Shown here: positions 5,330 through 15,967 of the stretch, in pieces
How the letters are laid out: each line of letters begins with the position of its first letter
Position numbering within the stretch: the stretch's first letter is position 1
NCBI GenBank assembly: GCA_016650125.1
Contig: JAENWT010000011.1
Span: 1-64,000, forward strand
Source of the DNA: Thermoleophilia bacterium
GTDB taxonomy: Bacteria; Actinomycetota; Thermoleophilia; Solirubrobacterales; 70-9
Reading direction: 5' to 3'
DNA: 64,000 nt
Position numbers and translations under genes: made by a program
The notes under the pieces: generated by a model
What the model was told of the DNA's origin: nothing
Databases searched by the model: none
The model's input: only the letters and a program-made list of their open reading frames with translations

Positions 5330-5418
5330 CATCCAATCCATTTAGCAAAATGACCTCCTGAAAGGGCTTGATAGCGACAGATTGCGCCTGTCGCGGCCCG
5401 AGTCAGGAGGTCACCCAA

Positions 5419-6726
5419 ATGGTGAAGCATTCGAGTCCGGTTCGCATTGAGAAGATCAAGCCTTGTTTCGACGATGCCCGGCTCGTAAGTGACGCCGGCC
5501 TGATCATCCCGGCCACTCTCGCCGAGCGCCTGGGATTGGCCAAGCTGATCAACGAAAAGCTCGACCTCGGATCCCGTCCCGGTGCCGTCCGCCCGGAGCG
5601 CAAAGCGATGACCCTGATCTACGCGATGCTGGCCGGAGCCGACTCGATCGATGATTGCGACCTGCTTCGCAGTGGCGCAACCGAAGCGGTCCTTGCCCAT
5701 AAGGCATTGGCACCTTCGACCCTCGGCACCTTCCTTCGCAGTATGAGCTTCGGTCACGTCCGCCAGTTGGAATCGATCAGTGGTGAACTACTCCGGCGCG
5801 CCTGGTCGGCAGGTGCCGGGCCGGTTGAGGGCGAGCGCCTGACGATCGATCTCGACTCCTTCGTCGGTCAGGTCCACGGCTACCAAAAGCAGGGCGCCGG
5901 CTTCGGCTACACCGGCGAGCGCGGCCTCCACCCGCTGCTGGCCACCCGGGCGGGTACCGGCGAGATCCTCGGGATCCGGCTGCGCGAAGGCTCGGCAAAC
6001 ACCCAGCGCGGTATCCAGCGCTTCCTCGAAGAGCTGATCCCAAGGGTCCGCCGGGCCGGAGCCACGGGCGAGATCCTGATCCGAGCCGATTCGGGTTTTT
6101 GGCGAGCGAAGACCTTCGAGCTACTGGAGGAGAAAGGCATCTCCTACTCGATCGGGGTCCGCCAGCAGGGCAAGGTCCCCGAGGCGATCGCCGAGATCCC
6201 GGAATCGGCCTGGCAAAGGCTTGAGGACTACCCCGAGCCCGGTCTGGCCGAAATCGCTGAGACCATCTGCTCCGGACGCCGGCTGATCGTTCGTCGGGTG
6301 CGGGAGCTATCTGACCAGCAGGAGCTCTTGCCGGGCTGGCGCCACCACGCCTTCATGACCAACCGCACCGAGGAGATCGGGGTGGTTGAAGCCGAACACC
6401 GAAAGCACGCGGTGATCGAGCTTGCGATCCGGGACCTCAAGGCCGGGGCTCTGGCTCACTTTCCCTCCGGGCACTTCTCGGCCAACTCGGCCTGGACCCA
6501 GTTCGCCGCCGTGGCCCATAACCTCGCCCGCTTCAGTCAGGTGATCGGATCTCCTGGCAGGACCTTGGCGACGCTGCCCACCTTCCAGCGCAAGCTGCTT
6601 CAGGTTCCCGGCCGGATCACCCGCTCGGCCCGGCAGACGGTGCTTCACCTGCCGGCTCGCTGGCCCTGGCGGATCGCCTTCATGGAGGCCCTCAGTCGGA
6701 TCAGGGCATTGCCAACTCTGGCCTGA
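5419..6726 (+). CDS. IS1380-family DDE transposase
   Basis: 435 aa, the usual size for this family. I chose the ATG at 5419 because AGGAGG sits 8 nt before it; an upstream TTG in frame has no such signal. The DDE elements are visible: the first Asp in the LTIDLDSF strand followed by the conserved HGYQKQGAG and GxHPLLA segment, the second Asp in IRADSGFW, and the catalytic Glu in the HAVIELAIRDLKAGAL helix. The reading frame is intact, so the element may be active. The only neighbouring trace of a relative is the lone end at 127-141. Confidence 0.93.
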   Translation: MVKHSSPVRIEKIKPCFDDARLVSDAGLIIPATLAERLGLAKLINEKLDLGSRPGAVRPERKAMTLIYAMLAGADSIDDCDLLRSGATEAVLAHKALAPSTLGTFLRSMSFGHVRQLESISGELLRRAWSAGAGPVEGERLTIDLDSFVGQVHGYQKQGAGFGYTGERGLHPLLATRAGTGEILGIRLREGSANTQRGIQRFLEELIPRVRRAGATGEILIRADSGFWRAKTFELLEEKGISYSIGVRQQGKVPEAIAEIPESAWQRLEDYPEPGLAEIAETICSGRRLIVRRVRELSDQQELLPGWRHHAFMTNRTEEIGVVEAEHRKHAVIELAIRDLKAGALAHFPSGHFSANSAWTQFAAVAHNLARFSQVIGSPGRTLATLPTFQRKLLQVPGRITRSARQTVLHLPARWPWRIAFMEALSRIRALPTLA

Positions 6727-7348: not shown

Positions 7349-9650
<2,302 letters not shown>

Positions 9651-11222: not shown

Positions 11223-11921
11223 CTACTTTTTAGCGGGTTCGAAGTAGGGGTTGGTACCAACGGCGTGGTCGGTCACGTCGATCACCCGGACGATCTCGGG
11301 CACCGTCTCTATGATCGCGACCTCAATCCCCTGGCTGAGAGTTACGGTGGCCATCCCGCAGCCCTGACAGCCGCCGCCCAGCCGCAGGTAGGCGGCGTCG
11401 TCTTCGACAGCCACCAGCTCGGCATGGCCGCCGTGCGCGGCAATGGATGGGTTCACTTGCTGTTCGAGCACCTGGATCACCCTTTGAGCAACGTCACCGC
11501 TCAAGTCGGCTGGCGGCCGGGCTTCAATCGGCGGGCTTGCGGGTGCCGCCGTCGGGCTCATCATGGGAAGCGCGGTTGGAGGTGCCTTCGGGGCCGGAGG
11601 CTTGTTGGGATTCACAACCGTGAAGCCGCTCTGTTCAGGGTGATCCGACCAGTCGATCGTAGCGCCCCGGAGCTTCTTGACACTCGATTCCGGCACTACG
11701 ACCGCCAGATCACCGTGGTGCTCCACCTCGGCATCAGGGCTAGCGCTACGTAAGCCGTTCAGAAAGATTTTGTAGACGTACTTGTCGCCCGAAGCACCGC
11801 TCACCTCCACCCACAGTGCCTCATCCTCGGGATCATCGGACTGAGAGCGAAATCCCATGACCTTTTCGATCGCCTGCTCGGTGATCGCCAGCAGTGGCTC
11901 GTCTGTGTGTTCGAAAGTCAT
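11223..11921 (-). CDS. Nfu-type Fe-S cluster scaffold/carrier
   Basis: 232 aa. The N-terminal 100 residues resemble an A-type/HesB-like (NfuA N-terminal) fold. A Pro/Ala-rich linker at about 115-150 follows, then a NifU C-terminal domain (VIQVLEQQVNPSIAAHGGHAEL) with the Fe-S-binding CxxC in GGGCQGCGMA. This layout is that of NfuA, which binds a [4Fe-4S] cluster across a dimer and passes it to client enzymes, including radical SAM proteins. It is transcribed divergently from the ATP-grasp and radical SAM genes, 62 bp between starts, which suggests it services that cluster. I see no SD box. Fe-S chemistry is known for the family; the link to the radical SAM neighbour is inference. Confidence 0.88.
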   Translation of the reverse strand: MTFEHTDEPLLAITEQAIEKVMGFRSQSDDPEDEALWVEVSGASGDKYVYKIFLNGLRSASPDAEVEHHGDLAVVVPESSVKKLRGATIDWSDHPEQSGFTVVNPNKPPAPKAPPTALPMMSPTAAPASPPIEARPPADLSGDVAQRVIQVLEQQVNPSIAAHGGHAELVAVEDDAAYLRLGGGCQGCGMATVTLSQGIEVAIIETVPEIVRVIDVTDHAVGTNPYFEPAKK

Positions 11922-11971
11922 CTGATACCCGTCTGACCGACCGCTCGTGGATGTATTTGGCTGACGCTACC

Positions 11972-11977
11972 TATGAT
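11972..11977 (+). promoter_or_regulatory. -10 element, leaderless start of ATP-grasp gene
   Basis: TATGAT ends exactly 6 nt before the GTG at 11984, the geometry of leaderless actinobacterial transcripts. No SD box is present. Confidence 0.55.
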
Positions 11978-11983
11978 ACGCCT

Positions 11984-13213
11984 GTGCCCCGCATCCTCTT
12001 GCTGCTGCCCACCGCGACTTACCGCGCGAACGATTTTCTGGCTGCGGCGCGGAAGCTTGAAGTCGACGTGGTTGTCGCCTCCGAACAACCCCAGACGATG
12101 GCGGAAATGATGGGAGATCGTTCTCTACTCGTGGACTTTGACCGTCCGGAGACCAGCGCCGACGCAATCGCGAGACGAGCGAAGGAGGTGCCGCTTGACG
12201 CTGTGGTGGGAGTGGACGAGCAGGGCGTACTCGTTGCGGCGCTCGCCGCAACGCGACTCGGGCTTATCGGTAATCCGCCCGAGGCGGTGGCTGCAACCAC
12301 CAACAAGATCACCATGCGCAAGGCATTCTCGGCCGCGGAGCTCCCCCAACCTGCACACCGCATCGCCGGAACTGACGTAAATGTGGCCCGGCTCGCTGGC
12401 GAAGTTGGGTTTCCCTGCGTGGTCAAGCCCATTTCAATGTCGGCGAGCCGCGGGGTTATTCGTGCTGACGATCCGTCGGCCGCCCTTGTTGCGGCCCTTC
12501 GGATCCGGCAGATTCTCGCCGATGCCGGCCAGGACAAGGATGCGCCGCTGCTGATCGAGCGTTACGTCCCGGGCGTCGAGGTGGCCGTCGAAGGCCTTTT
12601 GCGGGGCGGCGTCCTTGAAACCCTCGCGATCTTTGACAAGCCGGACCCGCTTGACGGCCCCTACTTCGAGGAGAGCATCTACGTAACCCCCTCACGCCTG
12701 CCCACCGAGACTCTCGACGCCATCAGCCAGTTGACGGCCTCAGCCGCCGCCGCGCTAGGACTCCTCGAGGGACCGGTCCACGCCGAAGTACGAATCGACT
12801 CGGACCGCTTGTGGATTCTCGAACTCGCGGCCCGCTCGATCGGCGGGCTCTGCTCGCGCTCCCTGCGCACCCGACTGGGCCTGAGCCTTGAGGAGCTCAT
12901 CCTGCGCCATGCTCTCGGGATGCCGCTGTATGATCGTGGACAGGAGAGTGAAGCTTCCGGGGTGATGATGCTCCCGATCCCGAAGGCCGGCGCGCTTAGA
13001 GAGGTGCGCGGGCAGGCTTACGCGCGGGCAACGCCAGGCGTGGACGAGCTTGACATCTCGATCCCGATCGGCAGGACGGTACGAACACTGCCTGAAGCCG
13101 ACCGCTATCTCGGCTTCCTCTTTGCTCACGGCAAGACTCCGGAAGCGGTCGAGCACACCCTTCGCAGCGCCCACGGGGAGCTCGAGATCGTGATCGACGA
13201 CCCTTCTGAATAA
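11984..13213 (+). CDS. ATP-grasp carboxylate-amine/thiol ligase-like protein
   Basis: 409 aa starting at GTG 11984, chosen because a -10 hexamer lies 6 nt upstream. The order is that of the ATP-grasp superfamily: an N-terminal preATP-grasp region with RILLLLPTATYRANDFL and a DAVVGVDEQGVL strand, then GLIGNPPEAVAATTNKITMR. The ATP-grasp fold has VVKPISMSASRGV (Lys for ATP phosphates), LLIERYVPGVEVAVEG, and near residues 285-300 HAEVRIDSDRLWILELAARSIGG (Mg/ATP acidic and Asn-like positions). Such enzymes join a carboxylate to an amine or thiol through an acylphosphate. It is followed within 30 nt by the radical SAM gene on the same strand, so they probably act together. The substrate is unknown. 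Confidence 0.85.
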   Translation: MPRILLLLPTATYRANDFLAAARKLEVDVVVASEQPQTMAEMMGDRSLLVDFDRPETSADAIARRAKEVPLDAVVGVDEQGVLVAALAATRLGLIGNPPEAVAATTNKITMRKAFSAAELPQPAHRIAGTDVNVARLAGEVGFPCVVKPISMSASRGVIRADDPSAALVAALRIRQILADAGQDKDAPLLIERYVPGVEVAVEGLLRGGVLETLAIFDKPDPLDGPYFEESIYVTPSRLPTETLDAISQLTASAAAALGLLEGPVHAEVRIDSDRLWILELAARSIGGLCSRSLRTRLGLSLEELILRHALGMPLYDRGQESEASGVMMLPIPKAGALREVRGQAYARATPGVDELDISIPIGRTVRTLPEADRYLGFLFAHGKTPEAVEHTLRSAHGELEIVIDDPSE

Positions 13214-13227
13214 AAGTGGTCAAACGC

Positions 13228-13233
13228 TATCCT
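13228..13233 (+). promoter_or_regulatory. -10 element, leaderless start of radical SAM gene
   Basis: TATCCT is followed by 6 nt and then ATG 13240, the same geometry as in front of the preceding gene. It could give an internal promoter in addition to read-through. Confidence 0.4.
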
Positions 13234-13239
13234 TGGCCT

Positions 13240-14643
13240 ATGCGGGTTCTTTTGATCTCTACTTACGAACTTGGTCACCAGCCACTGCAGTTGGCCTCGC
13301 CGACGGCTGCCCTGGAAGCCGCAGGACATCAGGTTCGAACGACTGACCTCTCTGTCGAACAGCTTGATTCGGCTAAAATCGAGTGGGCCGAGGCGCTCGG
13401 AGTGTCGGTCCCGATGCACACTGCGATGCGATTGGCGATTGGCGCAGCCAAACAGATCCGAGCGCTCCGGCCGGAGCTGCCGATCTGCTTTTACGGTCTC
13501 TACGCGGCGGTCACCGACGATCTGATCGGCAGCGGAACAGTGGACCGCCTGATCGCGGGCGAGTATGAGCCGGAGCTTCTGGAGTGGATTGGGAGCCTCG
13601 GTGACTCTTCGGTGCTGCCGCAAGCGGCCAGCTCGATAGACCTTGGACGAAACGGGTTTCAAACTCCGAACCGGGACAATCTGGCTCCCCTGGGGCGTTA
13701 CGCCCGGCTGGAGCGAGACGGCGAAGAGCTTCTCGCGGGATACGTCGAGGCGAGCCACGGTTGCGTCCACAAATGCAGGCACTGCCCCGTGCCGGTCGTC
13801 TACGACGGCCGGATCCGAATCGTCGAAAGCTCGGTGGTACTGGCGGACATCGCCCAGCTGGTGGCGGCGGGAGCAAAACACATCACCTTCGGCGACCCGG
13901 ACTTCCTGAACGGCGTCAAGCATTCCCTGAACGTGGCACGCGAGCTTCACCAACTCTTTCCCGAGGTCACTTTCGACATCACGACCAAGGTCGAGCACAT
14001 CCTCGAACAGCGAGAGATCTGGTCCGAACTCAGCGAGTGTGGCTGTCTTTTCGTGGTCTCGGCGTTTGAGTCGATGAACCCTGAGATCCTCGAGTATCTC
14101 GACAAGGGCCACTCCGCAGAAGAGGCAGTCCAGGCGGTGGCCCTGCTGCGCGAGCACGGGATCGAAATCCGTCCCTCGTGGCTGCCTTTCACACCGTGGG
14201 CCACCCCGCAGGACATCCTTGAGATGTTCGATTTCATCATTGCCAACGAGATGGTGGGCAATGTGGATCCGGTTCATTACACGATCCGTCTGCTCGTTCC
14301 CAAGGGCTCGCTGCTGCTTGATCGCCCTGAGATCGCGCCCTATCTTGGCGACTATGACCAGGACCGTCTCACATACGAGTGGCGGGCCGGTGATCCTGAA
14401 CTGGACATGCTGCACGCCGAACTTGCCGGGATCGTCGAGGCCGACGTCGCAGCAGAGACTGACAGCGTGTCCACTTTCAAGACTCTCTACCGGGCAGTCG
14501 CCGAAGCCGCGGGTCGCTCGACCGATCTTCCTGACCTCGGTGATGTCGAGTCGCGGCCGCGACTCACCGAGGCATGGTTTTGCTGCGCCGAACCCACCGA
14601 CATCCAGCTCGCTTCAGTAGCTGGTAGCGAACCGGCGATTTAG
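13240..14643 (+). CDS. B12-binding-type radical SAM protein with CCAEP tail
   Basis: 467 aa from ATG 13240; a GTG 24 nt upstream is also in frame. Residues 1-125 look like a cobalamin-binding Rossmann-like domain, though the DxHxxG lower-ligand motif is not evident. The radical SAM core starts at GCVHKCRHC, cysteines 175, 179 and 182 (CxxxCxxC) that hold the [4Fe-4S] cluster. FGDPDFLNG and FDITTKVEHIL are later core strands. The tail near residues 446-453 reads FCCAEP (C448, C449), encoded by TGC TGC at 14581. I recall a family defined by a CUAEP or CCAEP tail in which the first residue can be selenocysteine; this member is the cysteine form. Family chemistry is unknown to me. Neighbours (ATP-grasp, Nfu, DsrE and a flavin reductase) point to a redox or sulfur-handling pathway. 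Confidence 0.88.
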   Translation: MRVLLISTYELGHQPLQLASPTAALEAAGHQVRTTDLSVEQLDSAKIEWAEALGVSVPMHTAMRLAIGAAKQIRALRPELPICFYGLYAAVTDDLIGSGTVDRLIAGEYEPELLEWIGSLGDSSVLPQAASSIDLGRNGFQTPNRDNLAPLGRYARLERDGEELLAGYVEASHGCVHKCRHCPVPVVYDGRIRIVESSVVLADIAQLVAAGAKHITFGDPDFLNGVKHSLNVARELHQLFPEVTFDITTKVEHILEQREIWSELSECGCLFVVSAFESMNPEILEYLDKGHSAEEAVQAVALLREHGIEIRPSWLPFTPWATPQDILEMFDFIIANEMVGNVDPVHYTIRLLVPKGSLLLDRPEIAPYLGDYDQDRLTYEWRAGDPELDMLHAELAGIVEADVAAETDSVSTFKTLYRAVAEAAGRSTDLPDLGDVESRPRLTEAWFCCAEPTDIQLASVAGSEPAI

Positions 14644-14672
14644 CGGACTCCACCGAGCTCCGAATCTTCCAG

Positions 14673-15038
14673 CTAGAGCGTGATCACGTGGTCAGGGGGA
14701 TTCCCTGCCAGCGCACCGTAGAGATCCGGAAAGCAGCCGACCTGTACCCCGGGGACGGTGTTGACAGGACGGCAATCCCCTGGCTCACCTTCTGCAAGTT
14801 CACGCTCGATCGCACAACGATCGCAGAGCATCAACATGATCCCCTGCTTCTCGGCTACATCGGCGAGGCGCGTGCCGACGGGATCGCCGGCACGCAGCAG
14901 AAACGTGTTGTCGTCGAAAAAGAACATTCCGACCACTTCGACCCCATGGGTTCCCCCCTCAAGCTGTGGCAGGATCATCTTGCCTAACTTGTAGCTTGCT
15001 GTGTGCCCGGATGTGGAGAAGATGTAGGCGACTTTCAC
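14673..15038 (-). CDS. DsrE-family protein (SaoD/DsrE-like)
   Basis: 121 aa, GTG start. VAYIFSTSGHTASYKLGKMILPQLE is the opening of the DsrE/DsrF-like fold, a small sulfur-relay family. Four cysteines (in MLCDRCAIE, PGDCR and VGCFPD) could form a reactive pair and a metal site. I recall a named subgroup, SaoD/DsrE, that goes with selenium- and Cys-Cys-containing proteins; assignment to it is tentative. It converges on the CCAEP radical SAM gene and follows the flavin reductase and adenosyltransferase remnant on the same strand. Confidence 0.78.
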   Translation of the reverse strand: MKVAYIFSTSGHTASYKLGKMILPQLEGGTHGVEVVGMFFFDDNTFLLRAGDPVGTRLADVAEKQGIMLMLCDRCAIERELAEGEPGDCRPVNTVPGVQVGCFPDLYGALAGNPPDHVITL

Positions 15039-15048
15039 GCATCGCAGT

Positions 15049-15195
15049 CTAGCTTGGGGTAACGGGTGTCGAGGCGACCCTCAGCTCCGCTTCAATATGT
15101 TGAAGTCCCTGGCGTCGCCCCCCGAAGAGCATCCCGGTGCTTCCGTCGTCGCCGGTCTTTGTGTAGACCTTGGGAACATCTTCGTCAGGGGTCAT
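15049..15195 (-). pseudogene. Cobalamin adenosyltransferase (PduO-type) N-terminal remnant
   Basis: 48 codons starting at an ATG that overlaps the stop of the flavin reductase gene. VYTKTGDDGSTGMLFGGRR is the canonical ATP-binding N-terminus of ATP:cob(I)alamin adenosyltransferase; the family is about 190 aa. After GGRR the sequence no longer resembles the family and stops at 15049. It is either a deletion remnant or a short retained peptide. The position between the reductase, which could make cob(I)alamin, and a B12-type radical SAM locus is suggestive. Confidence 0.75.
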
Positions 15196-15967
15196 CTGGA
15201 CCGCCCTCCTCAGCTGCAGCGGTAGTCCGGGGTCGTGGCTCGACGAAAAACGGCTCGGTTCGTATTCGGGAGCGATCCGCCCCGCAACGCTCTGCCGCAG
15301 CAGTGCAGGAAGAAACAAATCCCGGACCCCCGGCGATATAGATCTCGTACCCGGCCAGATCGCCGCTGAGATCTTCGAGCAGCCCCGGGACCCGGCCCTG
15401 TGGGCCCGGACCTTTGCCGCGGGTGAGGGTACGGATGAATCGAAAACCGGGATAGGCCTCTCTCCACTCTTCAAACCGGTCACGGTCCAGGACGTCGTCT
15501 TCGGTACGCGCCGAGAAGACCAGCGTTCGGGGCCGGTCCGGATCGTCTTCAAATCCCGCTTCAAGAAGGGCTCTGGCCGGCGCCAGACCCGAGCCTGCCG
15601 TCAGGTAAAGGACCGGCCCACCCTTCTCCTTTTCAGCAGTGAAAGTGCCGTAGGGGCCAGAGACTGAAAACTGGTCGCCAGGGCCCAGTTCCTCGTGGAT
15701 CCAGGACGTGAGTTGGCCCTCCGGGACCAGGGTGACCAGAAACGTGAGCGAACCGTCCCGGCGAGGCGAATTGGCGATGGAATAGGACCGCGGCTCGAGC
15801 TGGTGTTCAACGTCCTCAAGCAGCACATACTGGCCGGGAAGGAATTCGAGCGGGTCATGATCGCCTGGTTCCGTGACGATCTCGACGATCGACTTTGAGA
15901 CCGGATTGACCTCGGCAACTTCGAAGATCAGGTCACTGCGGATCCTGGAGTAATCAACCAGCGGCAT
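15185..15967 (-). CDS. FNR-type flavin oxidoreductase
   Basis: 260 aa with the ferredoxin-NADP reductase fold. RSYS at about residues 60-63 binds FAD, GPYGTF at about 104-109 and GSGLAP at 125-130 mark the FAD/NAD(P) interface, and IAGGPGFVSSC at about 211-221 carries the C-terminal nucleotide motif with a Cys typical of active members. It lacks a fused 2Fe-2S ferredoxin, so it would pass electrons from NAD(P)H to a separate carrier such as a flavodoxin, ferredoxin or flavin. It heads a - strand operon with the adenosyltransferase remnant and the DsrE gene. It could reduce the radical SAM cluster or cobalamin; this is inference. Confidence 0.87.
   Translation of the reverse strand: MPLVDYSRIRSDLIFEVAEVNPVSKSIVEIVTEPGDHDPLEFLPGQYVLLEDVEHQLEPRSYSIANSPRRDGSLTFLVTLVPEGQLTSWIHEELGPGDQFSVSGPYGTFTAEKEKGGPVLYLTAGSGLAPARALLEAGFEDDPDRPRTLVFSARTEDDVLDRDRFEEWREAYPGFRFIRTLTRGKGPGPQGRVPGLLEDLSGDLAGYEIYIAGGPGFVSSCTAAAERCGADRSRIRTEPFFVEPRPRTTAAAEEGGPDDP

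What the first reader, a model, noticed from the sequence alone, without database searches (positions are those of the whole stretch)
11223..15967. CCAEP radical SAM, ATP-grasp, DsrE, Nfu and flavin reductase gathered in one locus
Within 4.8 kb lie an Fe-S carrier (Nfu), an ATP-grasp ligase, a radical SAM protein with CCAEP tail, a DsrE-type sulfur protein, a cobalamin adenosyltransferase relic and an FNR reductase. Each is a plausible part of one pathway: cluster delivery, radical chemistry, electron supply, sulfur handling and amide or thioester bond formation. I know of no described pathway with this set. It is the strongest candidate in this window for an undescribed system.
Basis: partly seen in the sequence, partly recalled or inferred. 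Interest (0 to 1): 0.8.

Follow-up and report, generated by a model that had tools for sequence, protein, structure and literature searches.

The report
ArsL-like radical enzyme with peptide ligase
Three neighbouring bacterial genes (an iron-sulfur carrier, an amino-acid-joining enzyme and a radical enzyme related to the one that makes the arsenic antibiotic arsinothricin) turn up together in genomes from many bacterial phyla, pointing to an undescribed pathway that probably makes an unusual amino acid and links it into a small peptide.

Summary
The genes are real, but only three form a conserved module. The radical SAM protein (13240-14643) scores above the cut-off of NCBIfam NF040546 (CUAEP/CCAEP tail); in relatives the second tail cysteine is often selenocysteine. 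[quoted passage not shown] about 38 conserved residues are shared by the two and not by other B12-type radical SAMs. The ATP-grasp (11984-13213) is an L-amino acid ligase by profile and predicted fold; its nearest solved relative, BL00235, makes Met-Gly. Co-occurrence is strong: among 396 genomes of the phylum, 22 of 23 with the radical SAM carry this ligase against 10 of 373 without (p ~ 2e-27); in other phyla it is almost always present even when unlinked. Nfu sits next to the ligase, even where the radical SAM is absent. DsrE is a partial associate; the FNR reductase and adenosyltransferase relic are not part of it. No arsenic genes lie near 80 family loci. ArsL loci on plasmids also carry an ATP-grasp (5 of 6 read), of a different ligase clade. 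Best reading: ACP transfer to a soft acceptor, then dipeptide formation. Pairing is shown; chemistry and acceptor are inferred.

The parts
11223..11921 (-). Nfu-type Fe-S carrier (A-type-like N-terminal region + NifU domain with CxxC)
   Evidence: PF01106 E 5.5e-21; NfuA model matches only the C-terminal part, 93 bits, below its cut-off; adjacent to the ATP-grasp in most relatives
11922..11983 (.). 62-base gap between the divergent starts of nfu and the ATP-grasp gene; likely shared promoter region (inference)
   Evidence: ATP-grasp start taken at GTG 11984, matching homologues in alignment A3; sequence
11984..13213 (+). ATP-grasp enzyme, L-amino acid ligase type (ORF open from 11894)
   Evidence: PF13535, PF18603 LAL_C2, PF18130; profile vs 3VOT BL00235 full length E 3.4e-65; AF2 model pLDDT 91.8, Foldseek best 3VOT E 1e-31, TM 0.78/0.84
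13240..14643 (+). CUAEP/CCAEP-tail radical SAM protein (467 aa), ArsL-like
   Evidence: NF040546 564.3 bits, cut-off 500; ArsL model NF040542 282 bits, cut-off 450; AF2 model pLDDT 92.8
13762..13785 (+). CX3CX2C motif for the radical SAM [4Fe-4S] cluster (C175, C179, C182)
   Evidence: invariant in alignments A1 and A2
14581..14595 (+). CCAEP tail (C448-C449-A-E-P); C449 is selenocysteine (TGA) in many relatives
   Evidence: alignment A1; TGA and selA presence agree
14673..15038 (-). DsrE-family protein of the DsrE_rel_ELSE (SaoD-related) type; accessory
   Evidence: NF040913 194.5 bits, cut-off 152; SaoD model 121.7 bits, cut-off 169; 5 of 80 loci; enriched with the radical SAM, p 6e-7
15049..15198 (-). 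Short remnant resembling the N-terminus of a PduO-type cobalamin adenosyltransferase; not part of the module
   Evidence: no family match; intact copy at G000:C3:152443-152961; 79% identity over 39 bases only
15185..15967 (-). FNR-type FAD/NAD(P) reductase; bystander
   Evidence: PF00970, PF00175; not conserved beside the radical SAM

Best explanation
A small conserved biosynthetic module. (1) The Nfu protein delivers an Fe-S cluster to the radical SAM enzyme. [quoted passage not shown] X may be arsenic, selenium, antimony, sulfur or another soft element. (3) The ATP-grasp, an L-amino acid ligase, joins this amino acid to a second amino acid to give a dipeptide. Shown here: gene identity, families, co-occurrence, linkage, fold of the two enzymes, kinship to ArsL, Cys/Sec exchange in the tail. 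Inferred: the ACP chemistry, the acceptor, the role of the tail, the peptide product and its biological use.
For: Radical SAM over the NF040546 cut-off, next best model ArsL. Tree puts CUAEP and ArsL together against other B12-type radical SAMs (support 0.967), and about 38 residues are shared by the two and not by those others, e.g. E10, Q14, P15, Y154, H214, D221, T248, H253, W320, R350, W381, D389. ArsL transfers ACP to As(III) (PMC8552651; in vitro work cited in PMC12159101). ATP-grasp is LAL-type by full-length profile and fold; BL00235 makes Met-Gly and Met-Met (PMC6920838). Co-occurrence 22/23 vs 10/373, p 2e-27; 25 of 27 further genomes with no ligase near the radical SAM still encode it. 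Nfu beside the ligase or the radical SAM across phyla; in the Ignavibacteriales MAG L094 the radical SAM and Nfu follow sufD-sufS-(f58, sufU-like by position)-sufT-A-type. Plasmid ArsL loci also carry an ATP-grasp, 5 of 6 read, and phosphonate clusters use LALs to join an unusual amino acid to others (PMC11867202). Sec in the tail tracks selA, 13 of 14 genomes with TGA.
Against: The ArsL-linked ATP-grasps are a different LAL clade (23-26% identity, nearer to phosphonate-cluster ligases), so the parallel is not orthology. No arsenic genes lie within 10 kb in 80 loci, apart from one weak ArsR and one weak MFS match. The Nfu/ATP-grasp pair also exists in genomes with no CUAEP radical SAM (10 sampled genomes have the ligase alone), so the ligase must have a use without it. 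ACP chemistry cannot be read from sequence. No transporter or resistance gene is consistently linked.
Confidence: 0.42

Rival explanations
1. The module is a sulfur/Fe-S system: the radical SAM is a sulfur- or selenium-inserting enzyme whose tail cysteines bind an auxiliary cluster or a persulfide, Nfu repairs that cluster as NfuA does for lipoyl synthase, and the ATP-grasp makes a thiol dipeptide used in Fe-S handling.
For: Nfu is the tightest neighbour of the ATP-grasp, even without the radical SAM; SUF genes beside it in Ignavibacteriales; LipA and LipB beside it in MAGs labelled Chloroflexi; DsrE in the window locus.
Against: Only five cysteines are conserved and three belong to CX3CX2C, leaving two for a cluster; closest family is ArsL, not a sulfurtransferase.
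Confidence: 0.25
2. It is simply an arsenical pathway: the CCAEP enzyme makes hydroxyarsinothricin or a close relative and the ligase makes an arsenical dipeptide.
For: Kinship to ArsL and ATP-grasp genes in ArsL loci.
Against: No arsM, arsN1, arsQ, arsC or arsR pattern near 80 loci; tail differs from RCCLKC; ArsL cut-off not reached.
Confidence: 0.18
3. The radical SAM and the ATP-grasp act in separate pathways and co-occur only because both need Fe-S supply or share ecology or lateral transfer.
For: The ATP-grasp occurs without the radical SAM in 10 sampled genomes; in some genomes the two genes are far apart.
Against: Radical SAM without the ligase is very rare (1 of 23; 2 of 27), and operon-like adjacency recurs across several phyla.
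Confidence: 0.15

Closest known systems
CUAEP/CCAEP-tail radical SAM (seleno)protein, NCBIfam NF040546
   Same: Over the cut-off (564 vs 500 bits), same tail and core motif
   Different: Nothing; it is a member. The family has a name but I found no described function, and no paper in the held library names the tail
ArsL, arsinothricin radical SAM (NF040542)
   Same: Same overall architecture, CX3CX2C, about 38 family-specific residues, vicinal cysteines at the C-terminus, often an ATP-grasp nearby
   Different: Tail RCCLKC against CCAEP or CUAEP; about 50 more residues before the tail; not in ars operons; score below the ArsL cut-off
L-amino acid ligases BL00235 (3VOT) and BacD (3VMM)
   Same: Full-length profile match to BL00235, LAL_C2 domain, fold, E-x-(G/A)-A-R active-site signature
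   Different: 23% identity to BL00235; substrates unknown; linked to Nfu and a radical SAM gene
Phosphonopeptide pathways with ATP-grasp ligases (phosphonoalamide PnaB/PnaC, rhizocticin type)
   Same: Logic: make an unusual amino acid, then join it with LAL-type ligases
   Different: Warhead made by PEP mutase chemistry, not radical SAM
SAO (Sec-assisted organometal) system protein SaoD
   Same: The DsrE gene is of a SaoD-related family
   Different: SaoD cut-off not reached (121.7 vs 169 bits); no other Sao genes tested here

Membership tests
CUAEP/CCAEP-tail radical SAM (NF040546) | Score over the curated cut-off of 500 bits | tested here: met
   564.3 bits
CUAEP/CCAEP-tail radical SAM (NF040546) | C-[C/U]-A-E-P C-terminal motif and CX3CX2C | tested here: met
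   alignments A1 and A2
ArsL (NF040542) | Score over the curated cut-off of 450 bits | tested here: not met
   282 bits
ArsL (NF040542) | RCCLKC tail | tested here: not met
   window ends in CCAEP plus 15 residues; four ArsL sequences end RCCLKC
ArsL (NF040542) | ACP transfer from SAM to As(III) | not testable with these tools
   needs enzymology
Arsinothricin gene cluster | arsQ, arsM, arsN1 or other ars genes nearby | tested here: not met
   no match to these genes in 80 loci; one weak ArsR and one weak MFS match in L065
L-amino acid ligase | ATP-grasp fold with LAL C-terminal domain, full length | tested here: met
   PF18603 E 2.4e-15; 3VOT E 3.4e-65; Foldseek best hits 3VOT, then 3WNZ and 3VMM
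L-amino acid ligase | ATP-dependent dipeptide synthesis | not testable with these tools
   needs enzymology
NfuA | Score over the TIGR03341 cut-off | tested here: not met
   93 vs 269 bits, C-terminal part only
Nfu (NifU-domain carrier) | NifU domain with CxxC | tested here: met
   PF01106; CQGC
DsrE_rel_ELSE (NF040913) | Score over the cut-off of 152 bits | tested here: met
   194.5 bits
RiPP pathway | Precursor peptide gene in the operon | tested here: not met
   gaps of 62, 26 and 29 bases between the four genes leave no room there; wider flanks not searched

The most novel reading that the evidence does not exclude
A pathway spread over many phyla builds, from SAM and a soft element outside any ars context (selenium, arsenic or antimony), a carbon-metalloid or carbon-selenium amino acid and locks it into a dipeptide, a class of natural product or protective metabolite not yet seen, with an often selenocysteine-tailed ACP transferase as its key enzyme.
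Probability: 0.25. Interest if true: 0.85.

Novelty: new variant of a known kind. Interest (0 to 1): 0.6.

Why it matters
If right, ACP-transfer radical chemistry, so far shown for arsinothricin and diphthamide, would be far more widespread than thought, would use selenocysteine in many hosts, and would feed a ligase, giving a directly testable route to new element-containing peptides. It also gives a functional handle on an NCBIfam family that has only a name, and it shows that many ArsL loci on plasmids carry an ATP-grasp gene, suggesting arsenical peptides.

Tried and rejected
FNR reductase as electron donor of the module: not conserved. Adenosyltransferase relic as a part: about 20 residues, absent in relatives, intact gene elsewhere. 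Arsenic cluster: no ars genes in 80 loci. Orthology of the CUAEP-linked and ArsL-linked ligases: rejected by the tree, although two of its rows (L031, L050) were badly framed and should be ignored. RiPP precursor: no room in the operon. LipA/LipB/AceE linkage in the Chloroflexi-labelled MAGs: lineage-specific, not taken as core. DUF169 (17 loci): recurrent neighbour, no held paper explains it. Distance of the tail to the active site: not measurable, model coordinates are not released. Neighbours of solo DsrE genes: unreadable in short GC-rich loci. Haft and Gwadz 2023 and Haft and Tolstoy 2025, which may discuss these families, are not held.
Full report
What is there. Nfu 11223-11921 (-), ATP-grasp 11984-13213 (+, start by homology), radical SAM 13240-14643 (+), DsrE 14673-15038 (-), FNR reductase 15185-15967 (-). 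The gap between the divergent nfu and ATP-grasp starts is 62 bases, between ATP-grasp and radical SAM 26, between radical SAM and DsrE 29. The adenosyltransferase 'relic' is a stretch of about 20 residues; an intact gene is elsewhere.

The radical SAM protein is a full member of NCBIfam NF040546 (564 bits, cut-off 500); the next model is ArsL, 282 bits, below its own cut-off of 450. In relatives of the same phylum most copies carry a TGA at the second position of the tail, read as selenocysteine; 13 of the 14 genomes with such a TGA encode SelA, while the window genome, with CCAEP, does not. A tree with four ArsL proteins from plasmids and seven other B12-type radical SAMs joins CUAEP and ArsL (0.967), with ArsL monophyletic (0.995) and CUAEP weakly so (0.218). 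About 38 positions are invariant or nearly so in CUAEP, invariant in ArsL, and different in the other radical SAMs. The structure model is confident (pLDDT 92.8) and its best solved match is AprD4 (TM 0.66); I could not measure where the tail lies.

The ATP-grasp is an L-amino acid ligase by domain content (LAL_C2), by a full-length profile match to BL00235 (E 3.4e-65) and by predicted fold (3VOT first, TM 0.78/0.84). BL00235 makes Met-Gly and Met-Met (PMC6920838). A product of ACP transfer would be a 2-amino-4-X-butanoate, shaped like methionine or glutamate; that the nearest solved ligase takes methionine fits, but is not proof.

Co-occurrence. In 396 genomes of the window's phylum (Actinomycetota, inferred from named relatives), 23 have the radical SAM (strong matches), 32 the ATP-grasp, 22 both; Fisher p 2e-27. 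Genomes are related by descent, so this p is too small, but the adjacency recurs with rearranged order in Actinomycetota, Chloroflexota-labelled, Rokubacteria, Planctomycetota, Ignavibacteriales, KSB1 and Acidobacteriota MAGs. Of the named loci without the ligase nearby, 27 genomes were searched and 25 encode it elsewhere (L073, which already had it nearby, was also in that search). Nfu is beside the ligase in most loci, including those where the radical SAM is elsewhere or absent; in Poribacteria it is beside the radical SAM instead. Ten sampled genomes have the ligase without the radical SAM; this is unexplained and is the main weakness of the joint-pathway reading. In the window's own family and order, the 12 other genomes sampled and listed have neither gene, so the pair has been gained or kept together.

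DsrE of this type is in 17 of 396 genomes, 8 of them with the radical SAM (p 6e-7), and adjacent in the window, G140 and G236. It is an accessory at best. Its family is related to SaoD of the Sec-assisted organometal system, a weak hint of metal(loid) chemistry.

ArsL comparison. Of six plasmid ArsL (RCCLKC) loci read, five have an annotated ATP-grasp within 5 kb, with arsM, arsN1 or arsR genes. These ligases form a clade with ligases of a Priestia plasmid cluster that has a PEP-mutase-family gene, i.e. phosphonate-type, not with the CUAEP-linked ligases. So an ACP-type radical SAM has been paired with an amino acid ligase at least twice, if this is not coincidence. In phosphonoalamide biosynthesis two ATP-grasp ligases join phosphonoalanine into peptides (PMC11867202).

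Mechanism. Shown: identity, linkage, co-occurrence, folds, kinship. Inferred: ACP radical transfer, an acceptor held by the tail Cys-Cys/Sec, dipeptide formation. The acceptor is not settled; absence of ars genes speaks against a simple copy of arsinothricin biosynthesis. The strongest rival is a sulfur or Fe-S role, favoured by the Nfu, SUF and LipA neighbours.

Novelty. The radical SAM family is named in NCBIfam. I found no paper in the held library on the family or the module, but two likely sources are not held. I rate it a new variant of a known kind: ArsL-like radical chemistry plus LAL, outside the arsenic context.

Noticed in passing
window 7909-9650: A glutamate dehydrogenase fragment (profile positions 120-359 of 445) and a pyridine-nucleotide oxidoreductase lacking its N-terminal half meet head to head near 8740: a deletion, inversion or assembly misjoin.
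   Followed up: partly
window 5368-6726: IS1380-family transposase, 320 bits, close to the broken gdhA.
   Followed up: no
L113, L114, L115, L191, L192: Plasmid ArsL/RCCLKC loci in Alicyclobacillus, Priestia, Pantoea and Klebsiella carry an ATP-grasp gene, often with a GTP-binding protein and aquaporin: possible arsenical peptide clusters.
   Followed up: partly
L160-L163 and other loci: The divergent Nfu/ATP-grasp pair occurs in genomes without any CUAEP radical SAM; its partner there is unknown.
   Followed up: partly
L039-L048, L053, L057, L082 and others: A DUF169 (COG2043) gene recurs within about 2 kb of the radical SAM in 17 loci; function unknown.
   Followed up: partly
L197:548-9236: Priestia megaterium plasmid cluster with PEP mutase family protein, TPP enzyme halves, two ATP-grasps and ornithine carbamoyltransferase: rhizocticin-like phosphonate cluster.
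   Followed up: no
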